From NCBI RefSeq assembly GCF_010669225.1, contig NZ_CP048627.1, forward strand, positions 620,001-684,000: a stretch of DNA of 64,000 nt, in the 5' to 3' direction. The position numbers and the translations under genes were made by a program. The DNA is from Megamonas funiformis (lineage in GTDB: Bacteria; Bacillota; Negativicutes; Selenomonadales; Selenomonadaceae). Under the pieces are notes generated by a model, which worked only from the letters and a program-made list of their open reading frames with translations, did not search any database and was not told the origin of the DNA. The stretch's first letter is position 1. Every line of letters begins with the position of its first letter. Below are positions 23,059-33,831 of the stretch, piece after piece.

Positions 23059-23337
23059 ATGTTCAATTTTGATTTACAGCTTTTCGCTCATAAAAAAGGT
23101 GTTAGTAGTACTCGTAACGGTCGTGATAGCGAATCTAAACGTCTTGGCGTTAAAGAACATGCTGGTACTATCGTTACTGCAGGTAGCATTTTAGTTCGTC
23201 AGAGAGGTACTCATTTCCATCCAGGTGCTAACGTAGGCATCGGTAAAGATGATACTTTATTCGCTAAAATTGCTGGTCGTGTTGCTTTCGAACGTAAAGG
23301 TCGTTACAACCGTCAAATCAGTGTATATGCTGAATAA
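23059..23337 (+). CDS. rpmA: 50S ribosomal protein L27 (with cleavable N-terminal extension)
   Basis: A 92-residue protein. After the 9-residue extension MFNFDLQLF comes the mature [18 protein letters not shown] typical of L27. The last four codons and stop lie inside the 43-bp left attachment repeat of the integrated element. Integration therefore left the protein sequence intact: the element restores the gene's 3' end. Confidence 0.96.
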
Positions 23338-23366
23338 TTAAGAAATAAAGTCGTAGCCTTTTATTA
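23324..23366 (+). repeat. Left attachment site repeat (attL)
   Basis: 43 bases identical to 33771-33813, beginning TATATGCTGAATAA. It covers the last codons and stop of rpmA and the left arm of its terminator. Flanking bases on either side differ, so the boundaries are exact. Confidence 0.92.
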
Positions 23367-23387
23367 TAAAGGGTTACGGCTTTTTTG
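23348..23387 (+). terminator. Terminator after rpmA (element-side copy)
   Basis: Stem AAGTCGTAGCC with GGTTACGGCTT, then TTTTTTGTTTTT. Its left arm lies in the attachment repeat; a second version stands at the right end of the element. Confidence 0.85.
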
Positions 23388-23397
23388 TTTTTATAAG

Positions 23398-23420
23398 CGT
23401 ACTAAAAACGTACTATTATA
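23398..23420 (+). repeat. Putative integrase arm-binding site, left end
   Basis: A 23-mer with two CGTACT units (CGTACTAAAAACGTACTATTA...). It matches 22 of 23 bases with 33653-33675 near the other end, in the same orientation. It sits 31 bases inside the left attachment repeat. Confidence 0.6.
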
Positions 23421-23427
23421 TTCAAGT

Positions 23428-24490
23428 TTATATATTTTGATGTAATTGTTGTAGTTTTTCAGCTAATTCATTTTGTTTATTTGGATATAAATGAGAATAG
23501 GTTTTTAAAGTTGTTTCAATTTTTTCATGTCCTAGACGTTCAGCAATCATCAATGGCGAATAACCTTGTTCAATCAATAGTGAAGCGTGGGAATGTCTAA
23601 AATCATGAATGCGAATAGTTTTTAATCCTACTAATTTAATATAATGTTTAAGCTTATTAAATAAAACAGTTGGCGAAACTTCAAATAATAAATCATGTGA
23701 TGTAATAAAATCTTTTTGAATATAATTTTTTACAATATCAACTAAAAATTTTGGTAGTGTGATAGTACGTTTACTCTTTTCAGTTTTTGGTGTGGTTATC
23801 ATTGGCTTGTAGTTTTGAATATAAACCATATTTCTAGTTATGTGTAATAGATTATTTTCAAAATCAAAATCACAAGGGCGAAGGGCTAACAGCTCGCCAC
23901 GTCGTATACCAGTCCAAAATAAAATATTAAATATAGTGTAATATGGTTCATCAGTATTAACTTTTTTTATAAATTGATTAAATTCGTCTAGTGTAAAAAA
24001 GTTTAACTCTTGACCTTTTTTCGAACCTATTGGGTCGCAAAGTTTAACAGGGTTTTTCGGCAAATTATAATATCTAACTGCAAAATTAAATATACAAGAT
24101 ATTTGAGTATTGATAGCCCTTAAATACTGATTAGCTTTAGAATTGGTATCATCTTTAATAGTACCATTGTCTAATATTGGTTGGTGTGATTTTATTTATG
24201 GCGGTATCTTTAAAATAAGGCAATACATATTTTTCAATGATAGTCGTTTTGGTGTATAAAGTAGATGCTTTTATTCTTGATTTACAATCATCTAAGTATA
24301 TAGCTACTAGCGAGCTAAATTTCATGTCGCAAGTTCCCGCCATACGTTCGAGAAATTCACGCTCAAAGGCTTGGGCTTCTCGTTTAGTGGTAAAGCCTTC
24401 TTTCTTCTTTTTCTTGCGTGTACCAGTCCAATCAGTATAATAAAAAGTCGTGAACCATGTTCCACGTTGTTCGTTTTTGTAAACAGGCAT
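23428..24490 (-). pseudogene. int: Tyrosine integrase of the element, single frameshift
   Basis: The N-terminal part (24490 to 24155) has the AP2-like arm-binding domain (MPVYKNEQRGTWFTTFYYTD...) and the start of the core-binding domain, ending ...NIRQWYY at a stop. The remainder continues one base out of frame (KDDTNSKANQYLRAIN...NFAVRYYNLPKNPVK) into the catalytic domain to 23428. There Arg in GIRRGELLAL, His and Arg in HDFRHSHASLL, His in LGHE and Tyr in TLKTYSHLYP are all present. Removing one base near 24155-24159 restores a full-length enzyme. The start is ATG at 24490 with GAAAGGAA upstream. It is likely inactive unless the shift is an error or is bypassed. Confidence 0.85.
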
Positions 24491-24578
24491 AAAAAAAATC
24501 ATTCCTTTCAAGCTAAAAAATCGTATACTTAATAAGCCTACCATTTACCAGCTTTAAAAAGAATGATATAATTTAGTT

Positions 24579-24668
24579 GCTCATAAATTTTCAGTCTAGT
24601 TAAAAACTGGAATGGTAAGAAGTAGCCTCTTGTTATGTTGGTAGCATAGCGAGGGGCTATTTTTTTAT
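24579..24668 (+). ncRNA. Candidate small RNA between int and doc
   Basis: A plausible promoter (TTTACC at 24544-24549, 17 bases, TATAAT at 24567-24572) points rightwards into a short segment. This segment holds a small hairpin (CAGT...ACTG) and then a terminator-like hairpin (TAGCCTC...GAGGGGCTA) followed by TTTTTTT. No plus-strand gene exists here, so a small RNA of roughly 90 bases is the simplest reading. No protein is encoded. This is inference from signals only. Confidence 0.3.
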
Positions 24669-24679
24669 CTAGTTTTAAT

Positions 24680-25081
24680 TTAGATTTTTTTTACATGGTC
24701 TTGTAGCCATTGTGTTAGTTCTTCACAACTCATTTTACTGGAAGCAATATCAATGATGATATTTTCTAATTCAATACTTTCATAATCCAATAAAATATCA
24801 TTGATGTATAAATAGACTAGCATACTGTGGATAGCAGTTCGTTTATTACCGTCATTGAATGGGTGATTTTTAGTCAATCCATAACAAAGTCTAGAAGCTT
24901 TATCAAATATTGTTGGATATAAATCTTGACCTGCAAAACTTTGAAATGGTGAATTTACTGCTGATTGAAGTAAATTCATATCATGGATACCGCTTTCCAT
25001 TCTATATCTATCAGTAAGTTGCTGATGAAAGTCTAAGATATCATCAAGTAAAATATTTATAATTTGTTTTTCTGTATTCAT
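24680..25081 (-). CDS. doc: Doc-type toxin (Fic/Doc fold)
   Basis: A 133-residue protein with the Doc variant of the Fic motif, HPFNDGNKRTA (around residues 71-81). The N-terminus DILDFHQQLTDRYRMESGIHD is typical of death-on-curing proteins. Doc phosphorylates elongation factor Tu in phage P1. It overlaps the small upstream gene by ATGA, the usual antitoxin-toxin coupling. It would stabilise the element after integration. Confidence 0.88.
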   Translation of the reverse strand: MNTEKQIINILLDDILDFHQQLTDRYRMESGIHDMNLLQSAVNSPFQSFAGQDLYPTIFDKASRLCYGLTKNHPFNDGNKRTAIHSMLVYLYINDILLDYESIELENIIIDIASSKMSCEELTQWLQDHVKKI

Positions 25082-25230
25082 TTATTTGCTAAATCCTTAT
25101 ATAATTGGTCATTAATTTCCATAAAATAAGCTGAAGCTTCTTTCATTTTTTTTGCTAGTTCAGGACTATTTTTACTTGTGATAATTTTAATCTTAGCATC
25201 TGGTACTGGTTTGTTTGTAATATTTTCCAT
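25078..25230 (-). CDS. Small antitoxin partner of Doc
   Basis: A 50-residue protein, MENITNKPVPDAKIKIIT... to ...YKDLANK, with a good ribosome binding site (GAGGTGAG) upstream of its ATG at 25230. The stop overlaps the doc start (ATGA). It has no recognisable DNA-binding domain. The central charged helix (SPELAKKMKEASAYFMEINDQ) could be the segment that plugs the Doc active site. The antitoxin role is inferred from position and size. Confidence 0.7.
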   Translation of the reverse strand: MENITNKPVPDAKIKIITSKNSPELAKKMKEASAYFMEINDQLYKDLANK

Positions 25231-25293
25231 ATAAACTCACCTCAATTCAATAAATTAATTGTCATTACAATAAAGTTATTTACTTTGCTTTAC

Positions 25294-25316
25294 GCTGATG
25301 AAACGCTATAACAAAA
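25294..25316 (+). repeat. Dispersed 23-base repeat, copy 1
   Basis: GCTGATGAAACGCTATAACA and three further As. It recurs with one mismatch at 28137-28159, just before a replication-module gene. Its role is unknown. Confidence 0.6.
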
Positions 25317-25367
25317 TATTTTGCATTATTACCGCCATAAGTTTTTATATTGTGGCGGTTTTAGTTT

Positions 25368-25389
25368 AACTGGTCGAATTCGACTAGTT
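25368..25389. promoter_or_regulatory. 22-bp palindrome, possible protein-binding site
   Basis: AACTGGTCGAATTCGACTAG followed by TT: the arms pair except at one position. It lies in the non-coding tract between two hairpins. No family is assigned. Confidence 0.4.
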
Positions 25390-25690
25390 TAAAAGGGTAA
25401 ACTTAATAAACTGCCAATACTTTATCAAATCATGACAAAATATGAGCCGTTTTAAGCCGTTTTCTTTTATTAGTACTTATGATTGTACCTGTGGTTATAT
25501 TATGACCTTCACAGTGTAATACCATAATCAATAATTCAAATTCAAAATATCGCCCCAATATCTTTATTGGTGGCGGTTTTTTTATTTAACTGACCAGGTA
25601 TTCATAAAATCAAATACATATTTTAATAATCAATTGCCCGAGCAAAGCAATCAATTATTTGATGCATAAATAGGTACTTGCCCGATGTAT

Positions 25691-26326
25691 CTATTTATTT
25701 TTTGACATATCATATTCATTATTTAGTTTTAATAATTGTTTATCTATACCTAAAAATTTGCTAAGTTCGTTTTGAATATTTAACATTTTTTGTATTTCTT
25801 TATTTTTTTCATCTATTGATAAATTAGTTTTATCAAAACAAATATCATCTATTCTACGGTCAGTTAAAATAATAATATTTAATATATAAGATGAGAATAA
25901 ACTTTTTTGGAAAATATTTTTTTTCTTGTCTTCCATTGTTTTATTTAACGCATTTATCGTTGAAACAATATGAGATTTATTAAGAGAAAAATTATAATTA
26001 AGTTCTAAAAACGAACAATAGATATTTTTTTCATCAATATTATTTATTACAACTCGTAAATTTTTTAATTCATTAGGATTTAATAAATCGTTAATTTCCT
26101 TTTTTAGTCGTTCATCTTCATCTGCTGGCGTTCGTCCTAGTAAATCATCTAGCGATACATTTAATAAATCAGCTATTTTTATTAGCATTTCTAGTTTTGG
26201 TTCTCTTTTTTGATTTTCATAAGCTGTATAAGTGTTGTATGGAACATCTAAAGCGTCAGCAAATTCCTTTGCTGTTGCATATCCCGCTCGTTCCCTATAA
26301 ATTCTTAGGTTTTTATCTAAATTCAT
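25691..26326 (-). CDS. Phage-type repressor (cI-like), XRE helix-turn-helix
   Basis: A 211-residue protein. The N-terminal XRE domain is clear (LRIYRERAGYATAKEFADALDVPYNTYTAYENQKREPKLEMLIKIADLLNVSLDDLLGR). The C-terminal part (from about residue 75) is charged and shows no peptidase S24 motif, so induction by RecA-mediated self-cleavage is not supported. Induction by a helper-phage antirepressor, as in satellites, would fit but is inference. It is divergent from the cro-like gene, with AGGAGG upstream of its ATG. Confidence 0.85.
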   Translation of the reverse strand: MNLDKNLRIYRERAGYATAKEFADALDVPYNTYTAYENQKREPKLEMLIKIADLLNVSLDDLLGRTPADEDERLKKEINDLLNPNELKNLRVVINNIDEKNIYCSFLELNYNFSLNKSHIVSTINALNKTMEDKKKNIFQKSLFSSYILNIIILTDRRIDDICFDKTNLSIDEKNKEIQKMLNIQNELSKFLGIDKQLLKLNNEYDMSKNK

Positions 26327-26352
26327 TATATTAACCTCCTCATCATAATATA

Positions 26353-26475
26353 ATTATAATCCCTATTTTGTATTAAATCAATATATTTTTATAATACATT
26401 TTAGGGATTTACTTTAAATAATTAATGATTTATCATGATACATATAAGGGATAAAATCGATATTTATTCCCTAAT
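26353..26475. promoter_or_regulatory. Divergent control region of the element with repressor operators
   Basis: On the minus strand the cI promoter is TTGATT (26381-26376), 17 bases, TATAAT (26358-26353). Four copies of a TAGGGAT-type half-site lie in this region: 26359-26365 (inverted, in the promoter spacer), 26402-26408, 26447-26452 and 26467-26473 (inverted). They form two inverted pairs, as expected for cI/cro switching. The plus-strand promoter is less clear. Confidence 0.6.
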
Positions 26476-26497
26476 AAGTATGAAGAAGGTGGAAGAT

Positions 26498-26701
26498 GTG
26501 AAACTAGATAAAAGCAAATTAGAATTAGCTATGGCAGATAAATGTTATTCAAAAACTAGACTTGTAGCTAATGCAGGTATCTGCTATTCAAGTTTAATCA
26601 AGTTACTCAATGGCAGAATGAAATTAACGCCCCAAACACTAGGAAAAATAGCCAAAACGTTAGAGGTTAAACCAAAAGATTTATTAAAAGATGAGGACTA
26701 A
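26498..26701 (+). CDS. Cro-like XRE-family DNA-binding protein
   Basis: A 67-residue helix-turn-helix protein: MKLDKSKLELAMADKCYSKT...CYSSLIKLLNGRMKLTPQTLGKIAKTLEVKPKDLL. I choose GTG 26498 because GAAGGTGG lies upstream and the family begins MKLDK. An ATG at 26480 in frame has no ribosome binding site and would overlap the operator region. It is first in the plus-strand early operon and divergent from cI. Confidence 0.8.
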   Translation: MKLDKSKLELAMADKCYSKTRLVANAGICYSSLIKLLNGRMKLTPQTLGKIAKTLEVKPKDLLKDED

Positions 26702-26766
26702 CCGCCAAAAAAGCAAATAAAAAAGCCCCTAGAATATCTAGGAGCTATCGAAAGGAAGTTAAAAAC

Positions 26767-27354
26767 ATGGATAATCAAAATAATTTGGTTCATATGTTCA
26801 AAAATCAAGTTGTTGTATCTAGTGTACAACTTGCAGAGCATTTTGACAAACGTCATTGTGATATTTTACGTTTACTCAACGCACTTCTGCGTTCAGCTAA
26901 TAAGCAAAGGCTTTCTAAGCACTTTTTTAAGTCGAATTATAAAGATGAAACAGGCAAAAATAACACTATGTATCTAATGGATAGGGACGGATTTAGCCTG
27001 CTTGTCATGAGTTTTAAGGGTGAAAAAGCTTTAAAGTGGAAGTTAGATTTTATTGATGCCTTCAATGCTATGGAGCAAGAAATAAGAAACAATGAACATA
27101 AATTAAATACTGATTTAAAAGATAAACTATATAATACATCAATCAAGCTTGAAAAGGTAAAAATACTTCATAATAGACTTTTTGAAGAAAGTACGAACCA
27201 ATCAGCGTTATTAAATGAAAAACGAGCTGAATTATTAAGATATAAAGCTTTTAGAGATTTAATAATAGCTAAACAGCTAGAAAATGACTCCGCTGGATTA
27301 TCATATGACGACGTTGATGAAATCGACAATAGAATTTTCGGCGAGATAGATTAA
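26767..27354 (+). CDS. Rha-family phage regulatory protein / antirepressor-like
   Basis: A 195-residue protein. The N-terminal Rha (pRha) domain spans residues 10-100: VVVSSVQLAEHFDKRHCDILR, FKSNYKDETGKNNTMYLMDRDGFSLLVMSF and GEKALKWKLDFIDAFNAME. A coiled-coil-like C-terminus follows (residues 105-170, rich in Lys, Glu and Leu). Rha proteins are lysogeny regulators found in temperate phages and islands. GAAAGGAAG precedes ATG 26767. A small hairpin (CCTAGA...TCTAGG) lies between cro and this gene. Confidence 0.8.
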   Translation: MDNQNNLVHMFKNQVVVSSVQLAEHFDKRHCDILRLLNALLRSANKQRLSKHFFKSNYKDETGKNNTMYLMDRDGFSLLVMSFKGEKALKWKLDFIDAFNAMEQEIRNNEHKLNTDLKDKLYNTSIKLEKVKILHNRLFEESTNQSALLNEKRAELLRYKAFRDLIIAKQLENDSAGLSYDDVDEIDNRIFGEID

Positions 27355-27417
27355 AACTTATTAAATTATCATTCAGTGAAGTAATAGAAATTCTAAAATA
27401 AAGAAGTGATTAAATAA

Positions 27418-27597
27418 ATGTTTTATGTACAAAACGGTATTGTAATTGATATGGCGGACTTTTTCCCATTTAATAAACATTCTATTGATGAGAAATTCCA
27501 AAGACTTCAATAAAGGATAGAAAGAGCTAAGATACTTAGAGCAAAATATAATAAAAAGAAACAAGATACCCGCCAAAAATATTCAGATTGGTGCTGA
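27418..27597 (+). pseudogene. Small phage gene interrupted by an in-frame stop
   Basis: Starting at ATG 27418 the frame encodes MFYVQNGIVIDMADFFPFNK... to RLQ, then TAA at 27511-27513. It continues in the same frame for 27 codons rich in Arg and Lys (RIERAKILRAKYNKKKQDTR...) to TGA at 27595. A single G-to-T change (GAA to TAA) would explain it. Without that change it would be 59 residues. The family is not recognised. Confidence 0.45.
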
Positions 27598-27633
27598 CAG
27601 GATTTTTATTGAACTCTAGGAGAGTTTCTATAC

Positions 27634-27834
27634 ATGGATAATCTAATAACGATTAAAATCAAAGCTACGAGTTTTGACAGGCTCATAGATGAATTAAAGA
27701 GCTTAAAAGATATGTATTTAGACTTTAGCAATAATACAGATAATATTATAACTGGCTCATCTTTTCATATTATTGTCAAAGATTTAGAAACTTTAATAGC
27801 TAAATATGAATATAAAAAAAGCCCCTCGCACTAA
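27634..27834 (+). CDS. Small element protein, unknown function
   Basis: A 66-residue acidic protein (MDNLITIKIKATSFDRLIDE... to ...KYEYKKSPSH) with CTAGGAGAG upstream of its ATG. Heptad-like leucines (LIDELKSLKDMYLDF) suggest a helical hairpin. I do not recognise the family. It lies in the early operon. Confidence 0.6.
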   Translation: MDNLITIKIKATSFDRLIDELKSLKDMYLDFSNNTDNIITGSSFHIIVKDLETLIAKYEYKKSPSH

Positions 27835-27897
27835 GACAAGGAGCATAAAAAAATTAAAAGCAAGTAAATTTTATCATGAAAGGACTGAATTGAAAAT

Positions 27898-28083
27898 ATG
27901 GAAACTGTAAAAAGTCGATTTATAACTGCCAAAGAGATTGCTGAAGACTGCAATATATCTATTTCAAAGGCTTATGAACTTATTAGAGAAATGAATAAGG
28001 AAGTAGAAGCAATGGGCAAAATCACGCTAAAAGGCAAGATAAACCGCCATTTCTACGAGAAAAAAATAAATCCTACTGATTGA
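27898..28083 (+). CDS. Excisionase-like small DNA-binding protein
   Basis: A 61-residue basic protein with a winged-helix/HTH pattern of the excisionase type: FITAKEIAEDCNISISKAYELIREMNKEVEAMGK. Such proteins in satellites and ICEs direct the integrase toward excision. The call rests on size, fold and its place in the early operon; a small regulator is the alternative. The best ribosome binding sequence (AAAGGA) is about 13 bases upstream. Confidence 0.6.
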   Translation: METVKSRFITAKEIAEDCNISISKAYELIREMNKEVEAMGKITLKGKINRHFYEKKINPTD

Positions 28084-28098
28084 TATAGCATAAAAAAA

Positions 28099-28118
28099 TA
28101 GCCCCGTTATTGGGGCTA
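28099..28118 (+). other. GC-rich hairpin in the element's early operon
   Basis: TAGCCCC...GGGGCTA with a 6-base loop and no T-run. Similar hairpins occur at about 26728-26748 and 27818-27838 between other genes of this operon. They may set mRNA ends or stability. Confidence 0.45.
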
Positions 28119-28136
28119 TAAATTTATTCTGTAGTA

Positions 28137-28159
28137 GCTGATGAAACGCTACAACAAAA
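28137..28159 (+). repeat. Dispersed 23-base repeat, copy 2
   Basis: One mismatch to 25294-25316 (GCTGATGAAACGCTACAACA and three As). It ends 15 bases before the ATG of the following gene. Confidence 0.6.
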
Positions 28160-28174
28160 CAAGGAGATGACACA

Positions 28175-28519
28175 ATGAACAATAAATCAATACCGCCAAT
28201 CTATGAAAATTTTACACAGTTAAACAATGGAGAAATTCCACAGTTTGACTATATAAAAATATATCATTCATTCTTGAAATTGAAAGCAAATGAATTAATA
28301 TTGTTTTCTCTATTATATCAGGAATGCGAAGCAGATGCAGTATATAAAAAAGGATTAAATTATCTTTATAAACGGACTAATACAACTAAGCATACAGTTT
28401 TACGTTGTTTAAGTGTTCTCATTGATAGAAATTTGATTACAAAGAAGCAAGGCACGAACAGAAATCCTAGCGAATACCATATAAATTATCAAGTTTTACA
28501 GCAATATATAGACCAGTAG
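28175..28519 (+). CDS. Winged-helix replication-module protein
   Basis: A 114-residue protein with a winged-helix domain (LKLKANELILFSLLYQECEAD, then NTTKHTVLRCLSVLIDRNLITKKQ). It resembles the N-terminal part of the next gene's product (same ELILFSLL/ELHTLNLI and LRCLSVLID/LRILKSLTD segments), so the two may be related. It may be a replication accessory or regulator. AAGGAGATG precedes ATG 28175. Confidence 0.6.
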   Translation: MNNKSIPPIYENFTQLNNGEIPQFDYIKIYHSFLKLKANELILFSLLYQECEADAVYKKGLNYLYKRTNTTKHTVLRCLSVLIDRNLITKKQGTNRNPSEYHINYQVLQQYIDQ

Positions 28520-28535
28520 ACAGGGGGCAGGCACA

Positions 28536-29525
28536 ATGGCGGGTGATGCAAAAGCTAACATTAACGAAAATATTAAAAAAGCTAATATAGATTATTTAAA
28601 GTCAACAACTTTTATTAAATATTATTTGCCTTTCTTCAAATTAGGTTTAAATGCTGATGAACTTCATACATTAAACCTAATATTTAGTTTTGAAGCAGAT
28701 AATAAAATATATATAGGTAGTTCAAAATATTTATGCGATATGTTAAATTACTCAAAACCTCGAGCTTTAAGAATTTTAAAAAGTTTAACCGATAAGGGTT
28801 ATTTAAAAAAAGAAGCTAGCAACGGTCGAATTAATAGCATATATAAAATAAATCATATGTTCTTATATCAGCAAATTAAAAACAATGAAAATTATTCACA
28901 GTTAGCTGATAATAAACAGTTACAAAATGTTACGGTTAACAGTAATAAAATGTTACGGTTAAATAATTCTAACAGTAACGAAACGTTACCGATACAGTTA
29001 CAAAATGTTACGGTTAACAGTAACGATTTATTACCCAATAAGAATATATATAAGAATAATAATAAGAATATATATGCTCATTTAGAAAATGAGCAAGTAT
29101 ATAATCACGAAGATGATAAACAAAAAGAAGATGATAACCATTCTTCTAATATCATAAAGCAGGATACTAAGAATAAGGCTATCAAAAAACAGAATAAAGA
29201 ACTAAATGAGTTGCAGGAAAAACAGTTTGATAAGTTTTGGCAAGCATACCCGAAAAAGGTAAGCAAGAAAGAAGCTCAAAAGTCATGGAATAAAATCAAT
29301 CCTTCTTTAGAGTTATTCGAGAAAATACTCAAGGCTTTAGAAATAGTCAAACAAACTGGACAATGGAATACAGACAATGGAAAATTTATTCCTTATCCTG
29401 CAACGTGGTTAAATCAAGAGCGGTGGACTGATGAAATAAAGATGATGCAGGATATTAAACCAGTGATTGAGCCAAAATTGAAAATAAAACCAGTTTATGA
29501 AAATATGTTGGAGAATGATTTTTAA
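28536..29525 (+). CDS. Phage replisome organizer / replication initiator
   Basis: A 329-residue protein in three parts. Residues 15-110 form a winged-helix DNA-binding domain (ADELHTLNLIFSF...YSKPRALRILKSLTDKGYLKKE). Residues about 120-225 are a low-complexity Asn-rich linker. The C-terminal domain (FDKFWQAYPKKVSKKEAQKSW...FIPYPATWLNQERWTDE) is typical of phage helicase-loader/replisome-organizer proteins. The linker DNA carries repeats that look like origin iterons. The helicase gene follows. Together they form a self-contained theta-replication module. Confidence 0.8.
   Translation: MAGDAKANINENIKKANIDYLKSTTFIKYYLPFFKLGLNADELHTLNLIFSFEADNKIYIGSSKYLCDMLNYSKPRALRILKSLTDKGYLKKEASNGRINSIYKINHMFLYQQIKNNENYSQLADNKQLQNVTVNSNKMLRLNNSNSNETLPIQLQNVTVNSNDLLPNKNIYKNNNKNIYAHLENEQVYNHEDDKQKEDDNHSSNIIKQDTKNKAIKKQNKELNELQEKQFDKFWQAYPKKVSKKEAQKSWNKINPSLELFEKILKALEIVKQTGQWNTDNGKFIPYPATWLNQERWTDEIKMMQDIKPVIEPKLKIKPVYENMLENDF
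28917..29023 (+). repeat. Iterons: probable replication origin inside the replisome organizer gene
   Basis: Two exact 29-base copies (28917-28945 and 28995-29023) contain the core ATGTTACGGTTAA; a third core is at 28950-28962. Between them is an inverted relative, ACGTTACCG, at about 28983-28991, plus GTTAAC/GTAAC dyads. At the protein level the repeat reads QLQNVTVNSN twice in a linker. Origins inside the initiator gene are well known in temperate phages of Firmicutes. Confidence 0.75.
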
Positions 29526-29676
29526 AAAATGGCAAACGTTTTATAAACTGAAATATATCTGACAGTTCGAGATAAAGCCACCATGAATATTTTGTCATGT
29601 TTTCGATTGATGATATATGTATCAGATAAAAAAGGCTCAAAAAAGATTATAAGCAATAATAATAAAAATAAAGGTC

Positions 29677-31008
29677 GTGAAAAATTTGAATGATAAAATA
29701 CCAATTAATATTGAAGCAGAACAAGCCGTATTAGGTGCAATTTTAATATCAAAAGATACATCAATGGCTATTGATGAAATAAATCTAAAAGTAGATGATT
29801 TCTACAGATCTAGTCATAGGATTATTTATAGAGCAATGTTAATGCTATTTAAAGCCAATAAGCCTATAGATAATTTAACTGTTATCGAATATCTAAATAA
29901 AACGAATGAACTCGAAAAAGCTGGCGGTATTGCATGCATAACAAGCTTAGTAAACTGTGTACCTTCAGCAAGCAATATAAAATATTATGCTGATATGGTA
30001 AAAGATACCGCCATAAGAAGGAAATATATTCAAGCGGGAGAGCAGATAAAAAACATAGCTTATAATGCTGAAAATATAGATAGTACAGTAAGTAAAACAG
30101 AGAAATTAATATTTGATATTTCAAAAGAAAATGTCTATAAGGGCGATATTATTGAACCTACTGATTTAATGATTGAATGTATGCAAGAAATAGAATATCA
30201 ATATGAACATAATAAAAATGGTGTATCGGGTATTGATACGGGTTATGTAGATTTAAATAAAATCACTGGCGGATTTCAAAATTCAGATTTTATTATCATA
30301 GGTGCAAGACCAGCAATGGGGAAAACAGCTCTTGTCTTAAGCATGGCTAGTAAGATTGCAAAGAAAAATATACCTGTAGCGGTGTTTTCTTTGGAAATGT
30401 CAAAAGCCCAACTCGGTAAAAGGCTAATTAGCGGGGCAAGTTGCGTTAATTCGCAAAAAATATCTACTGGTCGCTTAGATGAAAACGAATGGCAAAGAGT
30501 TATAAAAGCTACTGATATATTATCTAAAAGACCAATCTATATTGAAGATAGTGCAGAGATTAATATTTTGCAGTTGCGAAGTAAAGCAAGGCAATTAAAA
30601 AGACAAAAGGATATAAAACTTATTATCATAGACTATTTACAATTATTAGCATCTGAAAGAAAAAGAGATAATAAAGTTCAAGAAGTGTCTGATATATCAA
30701 GACAGTTAAAGATTTTAGCCAAAGAATTAAATATTCCAGTGATTGCCTTAGCTCAATTAAGTCGAAGCGTAGAAGCTAGACAAGATAAAAGACCTATGTT
30801 ATCGGATTTAAGGGAGTCAGGCTCAATTGAACAAGATGCGGATATAGTCATGTTCTTATATCGTGATGAATATTATAATGCTAATACAAATAATAAAAAT
30901 TTAGCTGAATTGATAATATCTAAACATAGAAACGGCTCAACGGGCAAAGTAAATTTATATTATCATCATGATTATTGTTTTTTTGATGATTGTATTATGG
31001 ATATTTAA
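29677..31008 (+). CDS. Replicative DNA helicase, DnaB family (element-encoded)
   Basis: A 443-residue hexameric helicase. The N-terminal domain begins IPINIEAEQAVLGAILI; the RecA-like domain has Walker A ARPAMGKTAL, Walker B LIIIDYLQLL, and FSLEMSKAQLGKRL. The start is uncertain: GTG 29677 is very close to its AAGGTC sequence, while TTG 29686 (giving MNDKIPINIE) has better spacing. It works with the preceding organizer to replicate the element independently of host DnaB. Confidence 0.9.
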   Translation: MKNLNDKIPINIEAEQAVLGAILISKDTSMAIDEINLKVDDFYRSSHRIIYRAMLMLFKANKPIDNLTVIEYLNKTNELEKAGGIACITSLVNCVPSASNIKYYADMVKDTAIRRKYIQAGEQIKNIAYNAENIDSTVSKTEKLIFDISKENVYKGDIIEPTDLMIECMQEIEYQYEHNKNGVSGIDTGYVDLNKITGGFQNSDFIIIGARPAMGKTALVLSMASKIAKKNIPVAVFSLEMSKAQLGKRLISGASCVNSQKISTGRLDENEWQRVIKATDILSKRPIYIEDSAEINILQLRSKARQLKRQKDIKLIIIDYLQLLASERKRDNKVQEVSDISRQLKILAKELNIPVIALAQLSRSVEARQDKRPMLSDLRESGSIEQDADIVMFLYRDEYYNANTNNKNLAELIISKHRNGSTGKVNLYYHHDYCFFDDCIMDI

Positions 31009-31056
31009 AAATTGGCATAATATCACTAATAAAATAAGATTAGAGGGTTTATATAA

Positions 31057-31242
31057 ATGACTGATGTAATAATTTTTCACACTGATGAACAAGGTAATAA
31101 AACAGCTTGTATAATGTCAAATAGTAATACAGCTTTTGATGATTTATTTGAATTTATAAAAGATGATAATTTTAAAATGATTAAAACCAAATTGAATGAA
31201 AAAGCATATAAAGCGTTTATTAGCCAACATTGTGAAAATTAG
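31057..31242 (+). CDS. Small protein, paralogue A of a tandem pair
   Basis: A 61-residue protein, MTDVIIFHTDEQGNKTACIM... to ...KAYKAFISQHCEN. It aligns along its length with the next gene (M..V.IF, FDD...FK, C-terminal K..KAF), so the two arose by duplication. I recognise no family. It lies between the helicase and the late-regulator gene. Confidence 0.6.
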   Translation: MTDVIIFHTDEQGNKTACIMSNSNTAFDDLFEFIKDDNFKMIKTKLNEKAYKAFISQHCEN

Positions 31243-31259
31243 TTGATGAGGATATAAAA

Positions 31260-31436
31260 ATGATAAATGTAGCAATTTTTAACGATAACGGAAAAGAAAA
31301 AGAATTAATCTTATTAGGTGTAAAAGGTAGAAATGTATTTGATGATATAGAACAATTTAAAAATCAAAATTATAAAGTCAAAATTAGTACAGTAAGTAAA
31401 GAGTCTTTAAAAGCATTTCTAAAAGCAAATATATAA
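31260..31436 (+). CDS. Small protein, paralogue B of a tandem pair
   Basis: A 58-residue protein, MINVAIFNDNGKEKELILLG... to ...KESLKAFLKANI. It begins 17 bases after paralogue A and shares the M..V.IF/FDD/KAF pattern. GATGAGG upstream is a reasonable ribosome binding site. The likely fold is a small alpha/beta protein; the function is unknown. Confidence 0.6.
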   Translation: MINVAIFNDNGKEKELILLGVKGRNVFDDIEQFKNQNYKVKISTVSKESLKAFLKANI

Positions 31437-31447
31437 TATAAAACGAA

Positions 31448-31490
31448 GGGCATTAGCTCGCTATATATGGCGGTGCTAGTGCCTTTTTAT
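31448..31490 (+). terminator. Terminator after the tandem small genes
   Basis: GGCATTAGC (near 31449) pairs with GCTAGTGCC (31475-31483), then TTTTTATTT. It closes the replication operon. Confidence 0.75.
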
Positions 31491-31526
31491 TTGTCTATGT
31501 ATAATAATATCATTGAGGTGATTTTT

Positions 31527-31676
31527 ATGACTAATATAGACCAGCTAGATAAAATCTTACAGAGTCTTAGTACAGAATTACAAAAGAACAAGGAAATAGA
31601 AGATTTAAAACAAATAGATGATAAATTTATGGAAAATGTTATATTAGATTTAAATAGTGAATTAAGTAAAATGTAG
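31527..31676 (+). CDS. Small acidic helical protein
   Basis: A 49-residue protein starting at ATG 31527 after TTGAGGTGA (MTNIDQLDKILQSLSTELQK...). Heptads of Leu and Ile suggest a coiled coil. The family is not recognised. It precedes the sigma-like gene. Confidence 0.55.
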   Translation: MTNIDQLDKILQSLSTELQKNKEIEDLKQIDDKFMENVILDLNSELSKM

Positions 31677-31711
31677 GGCTTTTATTAATCTTAAAGATAG
31701 GAGCGTTTATA

Positions 31712-32107
31712 ATGAATATAGCTAAAAAATATCTTGAACAGGCATATATTGGATATCATAGAATAATATGTTATGACTTAATGATAAAGGGCATACAAGA
31801 GGATTTATCTAAGTTTAACAATGATAAAATTATTATACCTAGATTAAAAGCTGAACTAATAAGCTATGAAAAACAAAGAAGATATTGGCTAAATAAAAGA
31901 ATAGAATTAAAACAGTTTATTATAAATTTAAATATTAAAGATAAAATAAAACAAGTTCTAATACTTAGATTTATTGAGTTAAAGAAAAGACGTGAAATAA
32001 GTGATATATTACATTATTCATTATCATATATTGATAGATTATTAAAACGAGGCTTATTTTTTATTGATGAAAAACTAAAATCTAGTAGTCAAAAAGTTGT
32101 CATTTAG
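31712..32107 (+). CDS. Sigma-like late transcription regulator (DUF1492/ArpU-like)
   Basis: A 131-residue basic protein. The N-terminal half is a long helical segment (residues 1-75). The C-terminal half looks like a region-4-type helix-turn-helix: KQVLILRFIELKKRREISDILHYSLSYIDRLLKRGLFFI. In phages such proteins sit between replication and packaging genes and switch on late transcription. Here no late genes follow, which suggests it acts in trans, on the CRISPR region, or is a relic. Confidence 0.65.
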   Translation: MNIAKKYLEQAYIGYHRIICYDLMIKGIQEDLSKFNNDKIIIPRLKAELISYEKQRRYWLNKRIELKQFIINLNIKDKIKQVLILRFIELKKRREISDILHYSLSYIDRLLKRGLFFIDEKLKSSSQKVVI

Positions 32108-32577
32108 TTGTCAGTTTTAACAATAAAAGGTTGCAAAAAGATTACAACTAAAACTATTGAAAATAAGACGTTTTTTATAATTTGATAGTCTAGAAAAACC
32201 TAGAATAATGAACATATAAACAGATTTATTGGCGGTCAAATAATGATATGAAATGTACCCCAAAGGTGCATCTTAAACAAAACAAAAAATGTCCAAAACA
32301 AAACGAAAAAGGTCCCAAAAAGGTACTGAAACAAAACAACCTAAAACGAATATGAAAAACCGCCATAAGCCTTGATAATAAAAGGTTTATATGTATTGGA
32401 AAAGGTTCAAAAATTATATAAAAAGGTTTAAAAAAATGATACGAAACAAAACGAAAATTGAACCTTTTTTTCAACTCTAATTAAGGCTTTAAAAGATATG
32501 TAAAAATTATATAAGCGTTCATCAGAGTGAGTCTATTTTATAGATATTACAAAAGCTAGTAATTTTATAAAATGGTC
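32108..32577. other. Non-coding tract with repeated AAACAAAAC and AAAGGT motifs
   Basis: AAACAAAAC occurs at 32275-32283, 32296-32304, 32329-32337 and 32444-32452. AAAGGT or AAAAGGTT occurs at least six times between 32262 and 32428. An inverted repeat AAAGGTTCAA / TTGAACCTTT spans about 32401 to 32467 and is followed by Ts. A minus-strand open frame here is only low-complexity Phe/Leu. It may be a regulatory or packaging-related site; I cannot assign it. Confidence 0.45.
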
Positions 32578-32679
32578 ATGAGGAATATTATAAAAATAGG
32601 TGATTTTGTAATAACTAAGAATATCGCCAAAGATGATGACTATTTCTGTAAAATAAAAAAAGCTGGTGCAGTCATTTAA
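32578..32679 (+). CDS. Possible 33-residue peptide before the CRISPR leader
   Basis: ATG 32578 to TAA 32679 encodes MRNIIKIGDFVITKNIAKDD... ending KAGAVI. It looks protein-like (IKIGDFVITKN) but is short, lacks a clear ribosome binding site, and overlaps a terminator hairpin. Low confidence. Confidence 0.25.
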   Translation: MRNIIKIGDFVITKNIAKDDDYFCKIKKAGAVI

Positions 32680-32697
32680 AACTACATCAGCTTTTAA
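32652..32697 (+). terminator. Hairpin terminator upstream of the CRISPR leader
   Basis: AAAAGCTGGTGCAGT (32658-32672) pairs with ACTACATCAGCTTTT (32681-32695), with one mismatch and one wobble. It insulates the CRISPR array from upstream transcription. Confidence 0.65.
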
Positions 32698-32971
32698 GAT
32701 AATGAGATTATTTATAGTATATATCGTATCATTTTAACTTTGGTATCAATCAATGAAAAATTTAAATTAATGGTGGCTCAATATTACTATGTTAATTGAT
32801 GATGCACATATTTTACCAGCTAATTTTTTATAAAATCTTAATAACTACTGTGATTACTAACTTTATAGATTTATAACCAATATTTGCCATTTGCTGGTAA
32901 ATCTTTTTAAAGTCTTGCAATATTAATAGTTTATAACTATAATGTAATTAATAAATCCTAATAACATTAGG
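32698..32971 (+). promoter_or_regulatory. CRISPR leader with consensus promoter
   Basis: An AT-rich non-coding stretch directly before the first repeat. TTGCAA (32915-32920), 17 bases and TATAAT (32938-32943) form a strong promoter whose start would be near 32950, about 22 bases before repeat 1. A 9-bp inverted repeat TTTACCAGC (32812-32820) / GCTGGTAAA (32893-32901) lies upstream; the same TTTACCAGC appears near the int gene (24544-24552). Confidence 0.65.
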
Positions 32972-33528
32972 GATAAATATCAACAGGTGCTGTACGAAAA
33001 CAATTTTTTAGAAAATCCATTTAGAGAATACATATTAGATAAATATCAACAGGTGCTGTACGAAAACGCAGGAATATTTTCTTTTATTCTTTGTAAAATA
33101 CCAGATAAATATCAACAGGTGCTGTACGAAAACTTAGGTGTTCATGCTTCTAATCCTATGCACCAATTGATAAATATCAACAGGTGCTGTACGAAAACGC
33201 CATTAATCATTACCACCTTAATATCACTATTATTGGATAAATATCAACAGGTGCTGTACGAAAACGTAAGTTCACCGCCACCTATTACAAAACCGATAAC
33301 GGATAAATATCAACAGGTGCTGTACGAAAACCACTTTTTAAATATATGCAAGTGTTTTTTTTATTAGATAAATATCAACAGGTGCTGTACGAAAACCTAC
33401 AATACTTTACACGACTATTATTAGTGATAAATGATAAATATCAACAGGTGCTGTACGAATACCCTATACAATCATAATCTTCATTGGCACATACCCATGA
33501 TAAATATCAACAGATACTGTATAAAGAA
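32972..33528 (+). CRISPR. CRISPR array of nine repeats, no cas genes nearby
   Basis: Repeats of 30 bases (begin GATAAATATCAACAGGTGCT, end GTACGAAAAC) start at 32972, 33038, 33104, 33169, 33236, 33302, 33367, 33433 and 33499. The eight spacers are 35-37 bases and all different. Repeats 1-7 are identical; repeat 8 has one change and repeat 9 about six, marking the right side as the old, leader-distal end. The promoter on the left agrees with this. Repeat plus spacer length fits class 1 systems (type I-B or III range) better than type II, but the type is not determined. No cas gene is in the window. Confidence 0.9.
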
Positions 33529-33551
33529 AATTGAATATGTATTATTTGGAG

Positions 33552-33586
33552 TATGGCGGTTATTAATAAAAATACCGCCATATTTT
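33552..33586 (+). terminator. Terminator downstream of the CRISPR array
   Basis: TATGGCGGTTATT pairs with AATACCGCCATA (33571-33582) and is followed by TTTT. It would end the pre-crRNA about 24 bases after the last repeat. Confidence 0.75.
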
Positions 33587-33652
33587 GATATATAACTATT
33601 AGTCAAAACTAATTGATATCTTGTTATATTCATATATGGCGGTTAAAATTAA

Positions 33653-33675
33653 CGTACTGAAAACGTACTATTATA
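33653..33675 (+). repeat. Putative integrase arm-binding site, right end
   Basis: Matches the left-end site at 23398-23420 in 22 of 23 bases, same orientation, with two CGTACT units. It lies 95 bases inside the right attachment repeat. Confidence 0.6.
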
Positions 33676-33770
33676 AAAAGAACAGAAAAAAATAGAAATA
33701 TTTAAATATAAAATAGCCTATATTATATAGGAAGGAAAAAGATAAAAATAAGGTGAAATTTGATTAAAAA

Positions 33771-33813
33771 TATATGCTGAATAATTAAGAAATAAAGTCG
33801 TAGCCTTTTATTA
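33771..33813 (+). repeat. Right attachment site repeat (attR)
   Basis: Identical over 43 bases to 23324-23366, including the vestigial last codons of rpmA (TATGCTGAATAA). Confidence 0.92.
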
Positions 33814-33831
33814 AAAGGTTGCGGCTTTTTG
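33795..33831 (+). terminator. Displaced original rpmA terminator
   Basis: AAGTCGTAGCC pairs with GGTTGCGGCTT, then TTTGTTTT. It is the chromosomal-side counterpart of the terminator at 23348-23387. Between here and the ilvE promoter (33832-34004) the sequence is AT-rich with no gene. Confidence 0.8.

What the first reader, a model, noticed from the sequence alone, without database searches (positions are those of the whole stretch)
32915..32971. Consensus promoter 22 bases before the first CRISPR repeat, terminators on both sides
TTGCAA-17-TATAAT predicts a start near 32950. A terminator at 32652-32697 insulates the array and one at 33552-33586 closes it. Together with repeat decay at the right end this fixes orientation and suggests the array is a dedicated transcription unit, not a relic.
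Basis: seen in the sequence. Interest (0 to 1): 0.55.

Follow-up and report, generated by a model that had tools for sequence, protein, structure and literature searches.

The report
CRISPR guide array carried by prophage-like element
A small virus-like stretch of DNA in a bacterial chromosome carries its own CRISPR memory with a well-placed start signal but no CRISPR enzymes that we could recognise, while the host chromosome holds CRISPR enzymes of a fitting class elsewhere; similar arrangements are known from Clostridioides difficile.

Summary
The promoter stands up. TTGCAA-17-TATAAT (32915-32943) ends 28 nt before the first repeat. TTGnnn-17-TATAAT/TATATT ends 27-28 nt before repeat 1 in 6 of 6 intact leaders examined, from this genome and a sister species; all six also carry CTGGTAA at -78 to -80. 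The array (nine 30-nt repeats, eight 35-37-nt spacers, 32972-33528) is thus a leader-bearing CRISPR array in + orientation. The terminators are weaker: the left hairpin's T-run is mainly on the minus strand; the right one is two inverted copies of an element-specific 9-mer. The array lies in a 10.4-kb integrated element (43-bp att repeats at the rpmA end) with phage-type regulation and replication genes; no structural or cas gene was recognised in the 15 ORFs scanned. The host has a type I-B effector operon (cas6-cas8b-cas7-cas5-cas3) 70.5 kb away; no cas1 was found. Best reading: the element supplies guides to host Cas6b/Cascade in trans, as prophage arrays do in C. difficile. Main counter-evidence: the repeat's tag (ACGAAAAC) departs from the TTTGAAT ending of the five host-type repeats compared, so compatibility is inferred. 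No protospacer was found. New member of a known kind.

The parts
23324..33813 (.). Integrated prophage-like/satellite-like element, attL to attR (10,447 bp from attL start to attR start)
   Evidence: 43-bp identical direct repeat at 23324-23366 and 33771-33813, starting inside the 3' end of rpmA (L27 family)
23428..24544 (-). Tyrosine integrase read in two ORFs in different frames (24155-24544 and 23428-24063)
   Evidence: Pfam PF00589, PF14659, PF14657; frames differ
24680..25081 (-). Fic/Doc-like protein
   Evidence: PF02661, phrog_577
25691..26326 (-). HTH repressor-like protein
   Evidence: PF01381
26435..27354 (+). Cro/C1-type HTH protein and Rha/antirepressor-like protein
   Evidence: PF13443, PF09669
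28536..31008 (+). Replication initiation-like protein and DnaB-like helicase
   Evidence: phrog_270, phrog_19, PF03796
31712..32107 (+). Small protein, last gene before the array, with a weak sigma-70 region 4 match below Pfam's cut-off; a relative in the strain's other prophage lies about 2.5 kb upstream of the terminase small subunit gene
   Evidence: PF04545 E 0.0043, 17.0 bits against a cut-off of 24.1; 37% identity to G000:C1:1155894-1156160; terminase families
32655..32700 (-). Hairpin with T-run stronger on the minus strand
   Evidence: fold -15.7 (+) and -17.9 (-) kcal/mol; T count 4/8 (+) versus 7/8 (-)
32813..32900 (+). Leader inverted repeat TTACCAG (32813) / CTGGTAA (32894)
   Evidence: CTGGTAA at -78 to -80 in 6 of 6 intact leaders examined; TTACCAG at -159 to -173 in 5 of 6
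32915..32943 (+). Array promoter TTGCAA-17-TATAAT; predicted start about 32950
   Evidence: same spacing and position in 6 of 6 intact leaders examined
32972..33528 (+). CRISPR array: 9 repeats of 30 nt, 8 spacers of 35-37 nt
33552..33582 (.). Palindrome of two inverted TATGGCGGT motifs; possible weak + strand terminator or binding site
33794..33828 (+). Terminator-like hairpin in attR (a similar hairpin follows rpmA at attL)
   Evidence: only site called by the scan, where 0.6 are expected by chance; fold z -5.96; both att sequences printed

Best explanation
The finding is the leader promoter of a cas-less CRISPR array carried by a 10.4-kb integrated prophage-like or satellite-like element. 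SHOWN BY SEQUENCE: the array has a leader of the same design as the other arrays examined in this bacterium and its sister species (inverted repeat TTACCAG/CTGGTAA, then TTGnnn-17-TATAAT ending 27-28 nt before repeat 1); its repeat has the same length and hairpin position as theirs; the host chromosome encodes a complete-looking type I-B effector set (Cas6b, Cas8b, Cas7, Cas5b, Cas3) 70.5 kb away; a whole-genome search found no Cas1. INFERRED: RNA polymerase starts near 32950 and reads the repeats rightward; host Cas6b cuts each repeat after the ACAG-GTG-CTGT hairpin, leaving an 8-nt ACGAAAAC tag; the guides load into the host type I-B Cascade and, with Cas3, attack competing phages or elements, which protects element and host. 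New spacers would have been added in an earlier host or strain that still had cas4-cas1-cas2.
For: Leader and promoter register in 6 of 6 intact leaders examined. Repeat identity to five host-type repeats 16-19 of 30; summed identity (87) not reached in 20,000 shuffles; hairpin at positions 12-22, with the A-T pair at 15/19 of the trmD-site repeat being G-C here. Spacers 35-37 nt; those of the other arrays are 34-39 nt. I-B effector genes: Cas6 TIGR01877 1.6e-23, Cas5b TIGR02592 1.4e-52, Cas3 core 1.1e-36; Cas8b 1.4e-171 and Cas7b 3.2e-41 in PADLOC. The sister species has cas6-8b-7-5-3-4-1-2 plus an array at the same chromosomal place (its cas3 spans two fetched stretches, 56% identical). A prophage of about 43 kb in the same strain also carries a three-repeat array near its right end. 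Precedent: prophage arrays in C. difficile served by type I-B cas operons (passages of PMC8406132 and PMC6079278).
Against: The last 7 nt of the repeat (CGAAAAC) differ from TTTGAAT, which ends all five host-type repeats compared; these share 20-29 of 30 with each other, and the element's repeat read as its reverse complement still matches them at 13-15 of 30, so 16-19 is a modest excess. Cas6 of the two species is 86% identical, yet the tag differs. Cas8b matches no Pfam or NCBIfam family and Cas7 only NCBIfam models below cut-off; their naming rests on PADLOC. No protospacer found; the best element-spacer match, 28 of 36, is in the host's own pyrD gene and is probably chance. No expression data. 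The repeat occurs in 1 of 189 family genomes, this one, at up to 3 mismatches.
Confidence: 0.62

Rival explanations
1. The array was built for a different Cas system in another host (for example a type III-A or another I-B system) and is transcribed but not used in this strain.
For: Divergent tag ACGAAAAC; its resemblance to type III-A tags is recalled only. GTACGAAAAC repeat ends also occur in unrelated arrays: one beside type II-A genes (L036: Cas1, Cas2, Csn2) and one beside type IV genes (L033: DinG-like Csf4, Csf3). No close copy in the 188 other family genomes.
Against: Leader, promoter register, repeat length, hairpin position and spacer length all match the I-B-type arrays of this genus. 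No type III RAMP (PF03787) in the genome, though a Pfam Cas6 model (PF10040) also missed the Cas6 that is there, so this negative is soft.
Confidence: 0.22
2. An inert relic: repeats kept by chance after the element lost its structural and packaging genes and its integrase was broken.
For: Integrase read in two frames; no structural genes recognised; no cas1 found; last two repeats decayed.
Against: Seven of nine repeats identical, promoter and leader motifs intact and in register; by contrast the two-repeat remnant behind cas3 shows 5 mismatches in each repeat to the sister's repeat and has neither CTGGTAA nor the promoter match.
Confidence: 0.1
3. A decoy: repeats that host Cas6b binds but whose foreign tag yields poor Cascade loading, so the element weakens host immunity (an array-sized relative of RNA anti-CRISPRs).
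For: Hairpin close to that of the trmD-site host repeat (9 of 11 positions, the two differences being one changed base pair) while the tag matches at 3 of 8; phage-encoded repeat mimics are published (abstract start of PMC10651486).
Against: RNA anti-CRISPRs are solitary repeat units by that abstract; this is a nine-repeat array with regular spacers and a full leader.
Confidence: 0.06

Closest known systems
Prophage-located type I-B CRISPR arrays of Clostridioides difficile (CRISPR 3-4 and 16-15 in phiCD630-1/-2)
   Same: Arrays in prophages, several arrays per genome, type I-B cas operons of which the additional ones lack the adaptation module, two conserved inverted-repeat motifs upstream of every array of one strain (passages read in PMC8406132 and PMC6079278)
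   Different: There the prophage arrays are shown to be expressed and to interfere; here nothing is measured, the carrier is a 10-kb element in which no structural gene was recognised, no cas1 was found in the genome, and the repeat tag diverges from the host-type repeats
Virus-borne mini-CRISPR arrays of the archaeal viruses SPV1/SPV2
   Same: Promoter-containing leader similar to host arrays, no cas genes on the virus (abstract and passages read in PMC6858448)
   Different: Those have 1-2 spacers, with targets in rival viruses, and repeats like the host's; this has 8 spacers without known targets
Leaderless phage and prophage mini-arrays (survey cited within PMC6858448, not read itself)
   Same: Arrays on phage genomes
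   Different: Described there as lacking leader regions; this one has a full leader
Racr RNA anti-CRISPRs
   Same: Phage-encoded repeat mimics (abstract start of PMC10651486 in a search listing)
   Different: Solitary repeats, not a nine-repeat array with spacers

Membership tests
CRISPR array | Direct repeats of about 20-50 nt separated by unique spacers of similar length | tested here: met
   9 repeats, 8 distinct spacers of 35-37 nt
CRISPR array | Leader with promoter next to the intact end | tested here: met
   (sequence only, no expression)
Type I-B array of this genus | Leader of the same design (TTACCAG/CTGGTAA, promoter 27-28 nt from repeat 1) | tested here: met
   6 of 6 intact leaders examined for promoter and CTGGTAA, 5 of 6 for TTACCAG; the remnant behind cas3 (0 of 1) was examined and set apart; further G001 matches were not located
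Type I-B array of this genus | Same repeat, including the TTTGAAT tag | tested here: not met
   16-19 of 30 identical; tag CGAAAAC
Type I-B array of this genus | I-B effector genes in the genome | tested here: met
   cas6-8b-7-5-3 at G000:C1:724032-730989
Type I-B array of this genus | Adaptation genes in the genome | tested here: not met
   Cas1 PF01867: 0 of 1 genome; the same model finds the sister species' Cas1 at 7.5e-85. Cas2 and Cas4 were not searched genome-wide
Type I-B array of this genus | crRNAs processed by Cas6b and loaded in Cascade | not testable with these tools
   needs RNA and biochemistry
Virus/prophage-borne cas-less array | Array inside the borders of a mobile element without cas genes | tested here: met
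   att repeats at 23324 and 33771 enclose it; no cas family in the element ORFs scanned, 15 of the 22 of at least 60 aa listed between them
Virus/prophage-borne cas-less array | Spacers against rival phages or elements | tested here: inconclusive
   no protospacer found
Phage satellite | 7-20 kb, att-flanked, integrase, regulation and replication genes, no structural genes | tested here: met
   10.4 kb; integrase in two frames; wording of the definition from the abstract start of PMC13376191 in a listing
Phage satellite | Mobilised by a helper phage | not testable with these tools
   a prophage that lost its late genes is not excluded

The most novel reading that the evidence does not exclude
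The element's array is an array-sized RNA decoy or a re-tagged guide set: hairpins that host Cas6b still cuts, joined to a foreign tag that changes or blocks Cascade loading, so that the element reprograms or blunts the host's type I-B immunity instead of merely adding spacers to it.
Probability: 0.07. Interest if true: 0.75.

Novelty: new member of a known kind. Interest (0 to 1): 0.4.

Why it matters
It suggests, in a bacterium other than Clostridioides, the same division of labour: effector genes on the chromosome and guide arrays on prophage-like elements, here in a strain in which no cas1 was found. If the guides work, mobile elements are a route by which such a strain still receives new guide sets, and the divergent tag makes it a handy test of how strictly Cas6b and Cascade read the repeat.

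Tried and rejected
Type III-A assignment from the ACGAAAAC tag: dropped as primary after no RAMP was found and leaders and repeats matched the genus's I-B-type arrays. 'No cas anywhere': dropped; the first family searches (PF03787, PF01867, PF10040) were negative, but a sub-threshold Cas5 hit led to the I-B operon; PF10040 simply misses this Cas6. 'Only array in the genome': dropped; the exact repeat is unique, but a degenerate pattern found other arrays.

Protospacer searches without a convincing result: whole array against phages (13 records, 32-nt pieces at 87.5%, E 0.6, running from spacer 2 into the next repeat); plasmids (none); 189 family genomes (matches in 14 genomes including this one, E 6.9e-4 at best apart from the array itself; only the top 3 candidates per genome were scored; extended over whole spacers the best was 27 of 35); exact 20-mers of spacers 3, 4, 5 and 8 in viral contigs (only the identical contig L009 for spacer 3, and for spacer 5 one contig that matches 25 of 36 over the spacer). 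Spacers 1, 2, 6 and 7 were not searched in viral contigs. All 92 spacers of the seven arrays against held stretches: six reach 0.75 or more, where one composition shuffle per spacer reached 0.74; two of the six are element spacers (28 of 36 in the host pyrD gene, 27 of 35 in a stretch that had been fetched because it matched). I treat them as unproven.

Relatives of the element: in viral contigs the replication and small sigma-like proteins found one contig, identical to window 25887-33200 over 7,314 of 7,314 bases, so it is no independent comparison. In the family, the sigma-like protein matched 1 of 189 genomes (this one, twice) and the replication protein 5 of 189 including this one, the others at 38-47% identity over parts. 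Whole element against phages and plasmids, near mode: none; distant mode, window 26700-33600 against phages: the 20 of 136 records that were listed match within the dnaB gene only. Arrays ending in GTACGAAAAC: 34 genome and 14 viral stretches; by their printed contexts two, L033 and L036, were taken as CRISPR arrays besides the identical contig L009; the rest were not analysed.

The search list was capped. The 20 forward matches in this genome are all listed; the 17 reverse ones agree in number with the trmD-site and prophage arrays. In G001 about 24 of 45 reverse matches are not explained by its cas-side array and were not located, so 'six of six' means six examined, not all arrays. G047 and G063 have one match each and the backward control pattern one in each of two other genomes.

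Organism: no call names it. My recollection of genome size and gene content suggests Megamonas; not tested.

Full report
WHAT WAS CHECKED. The array has nine 30-nt repeats (GATAAATATCAACAGGTGCTGTACGAAAAC; seven perfect, repeat 8 with one change, repeat 9 with six) and eight spacers of 35-37 nt, ending at 33528.

PROMOTER. On its own a consensus match in a leader of 24% G+C is weak: 31 promoter-like sites in 2.5 kb against 18.0 (sd 4.2) in shuffles. The stronger evidence is comparative. I examined five other arrays with intact leaders: in the gap between pyrD and infC (11 repeats), behind trmD (17 repeats) and near the right end of a prophage (3 repeats) in this genome, and in the pyrD-infC gap (36 repeats) and behind the cas genes (21 contiguous repeats) in the sister species G001 (gene families of the neighbours). 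With this one, in all six, TTGnnn-17-TATAAT (TATATT in one) ends 27 or 28 nt before repeat 1, and CTGGTAA lies at -78 to -80; TTACCAG lies at -159 to -173 in five of six (alignment). In shuffles of each leader the promoter falls at 27-28 nt in 0 or 1 of 3000. A seventh leader, the remnant behind cas3 in this genome, shows neither motif and its two repeats carry 5 mismatches each; it was set apart as decayed. Limits: the leaders are related, and those of the trmD and prophage arrays nearly identical, so they are not six independent events; and G001 has about 24 more repeat matches that were not located (capped list).

TERMINATORS. Both hairpins exist (z -3.67 and -4.95) but the terminator scan calls neither. 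The left one (about 32658-32695) has 4 T in 8 on the plus strand and 7 in 8 on the minus strand. The right one is an inverted pair of TATGGCGGT. This 9-mer occurs eight times in the element and nowhere else in the window; the 10-mer TATGGCGGTW occurs 7 times against 0.09 expected. It may be a binding site. The scan's one call, 33794-33828, lies in attR; 0.6 are expected by chance, but it folds strongly (z -5.96) and resembles the hairpin at attL behind rpmA.

THE CARRIER. A 43-bp identical repeat at 23324 and 33771 starts in the 3' end of rpmA. Between the copies are a tyrosine integrase in two frames, a Fic/Doc protein, two HTH proteins, a Rha-like antirepressor, a replication initiator, a DnaB helicase and a small protein with a weak sigma-like match. 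Of 22 ORFs of at least 60 aa listed there, 15 were scanned in one or more libraries; none matched a structural, terminase or cas family. The sigma-like protein has a 37% relative in the strain's other prophage, about 2.5 kb before the terminase genes. So the element is either a satellite or a prophage without its late genes; I cannot separate the two. The only other copy found is a 7,314-base provirus contig identical to window 25887-33200, covering leader and first repeats.

THE CAS GENES. Cas1, RAMP and one Cas6 family gave nothing in the whole genome. A sub-threshold Cas5 match led to cas6-cas8b-cas7-cas5-cas3 at G000:C1:724032-730989, 70.5 kb from the array. NCBIfam confirms Cas6, Cas5b and Cas3 above cut-off, leaves Cas7 below cut-off and Cas8b unmatched; PADLOC names Cas8b and Cas7b of type I-B. 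The sister species has the same operon followed by cas4, cas1, cas2 and an array, beside the same neighbours, with Cas6 86%, Cas8b 69%, Cas5 75% and Cas3 56% identical. In this strain cas3 is followed directly by the decayed leader and repeats, with no cas4, cas1 or cas2 ORF between; only Cas1 was searched genome-wide. The Cas1 model that finds nothing here finds the sister's Cas1 at 7.5e-85.

DOES THE ARRAY FIT THE HOST'S CAS SET? For: same leader design; repeat of the same length with a 4-3-4 hairpin at positions 12-22, where the A-T pair 15/19 of the trmD repeat is G-C here; identity 16-19 of 30 to five host-type repeats, summed identity not reached in 20,000 shuffles; similar spacer lengths. 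The hairpin is weak by itself (-1.5 kcal/mol, z -0.30). Against: the final seven bases differ from TTTGAAT, which all five share; those five share 20-29 of 30 with each other; and the reverse complement of the element repeat scores 13-15. Type I-B use is therefore inferred, not shown.

TARGETS. None found. Of 92 spacers of seven arrays, six match held stretches at 0.75 or more, where one shuffle per spacer reached 0.74. Two of these are sister-species spacers that match one stretch of this genome (L091) at 28 of 35 and 28 of 36, each preceded by TTCA; one of four L091 proteins scanned matches phage tail families, the other three nothing. This hints at a PAM but is weak, as two element spacers score about as high without a sensible target.

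COMPARISON WITH WHAT IS KNOWN. In C. difficile, arrays in prophages are expressed and interfere; [quoted passage not shown]). Archaeal virus mini-arrays with host-like leaders and no cas genes are described in PMC6858448 (abstract and passages). I saw no paper on arrays in this organism's mobile elements, but the one search for it (Megamonas, CRISPR array, prophage; one paper listed, on gut phages in diabetes) rests on a genus name that I only recollect. So this is a new member of a known kind, with two features worth testing: a strain without a detectable cas1, and a divergent tag.

Noticed in passing
L103:9640-10324 (G000) and L105:9785-12119 (G001): Arrays without neighbouring cas genes in the same pyrD-infC gap of both species, with diverged repeats and different lengths (11 and 36 repeats).
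   Followed up: partly
L031:12068-12227: Three-repeat array with a full leader near the right end of a prophage, after its holin and endolysin genes; an 18-nt repeat (TTTTTGATTTTTTGTCTT) next to the integrase end of L029 and at about L031:14708 may be its att site, which would make it about 43 kb.
   Followed up: partly
L088:19096-19191 and L088:13391: The single spacer in the decayed array behind cas3 matches the strain's own cas8b at 30 of 36, the best of 92 spacers.
   Followed up: no
window 24197, 25331, 30007, 31466, 32359, 33552, 33574, 33635: TATGGCGGT occurs eight times in the element on both strands and nowhere else in the 64-kb window; role unknown.
   Followed up: partly
window 23398-23420 and 33652-33672: Paired CGTACT motifs just inside both att sites, possibly integrase arm sites.
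   Followed up: no
window 32272-32460: Several AAACAAAACGAAAA-like direct repeats between the last gene and the leader; possible origin or regulator sites.
   Followed up: no
L033:2100-3000: Alphaproteobacterial array whose repeat ends in GGGGTACGAAAAC, directly behind a type IV DinG-like Csf4 and a Csf3-like gene.
   Followed up: partly
L089:475-2216: D12-class adenine methyltransferase and a DpnII-family restriction endonuclease about 1.5 kb past the cas3 end, where the sister species has cas4-cas1-cas2 and an array.
   Followed up: partly
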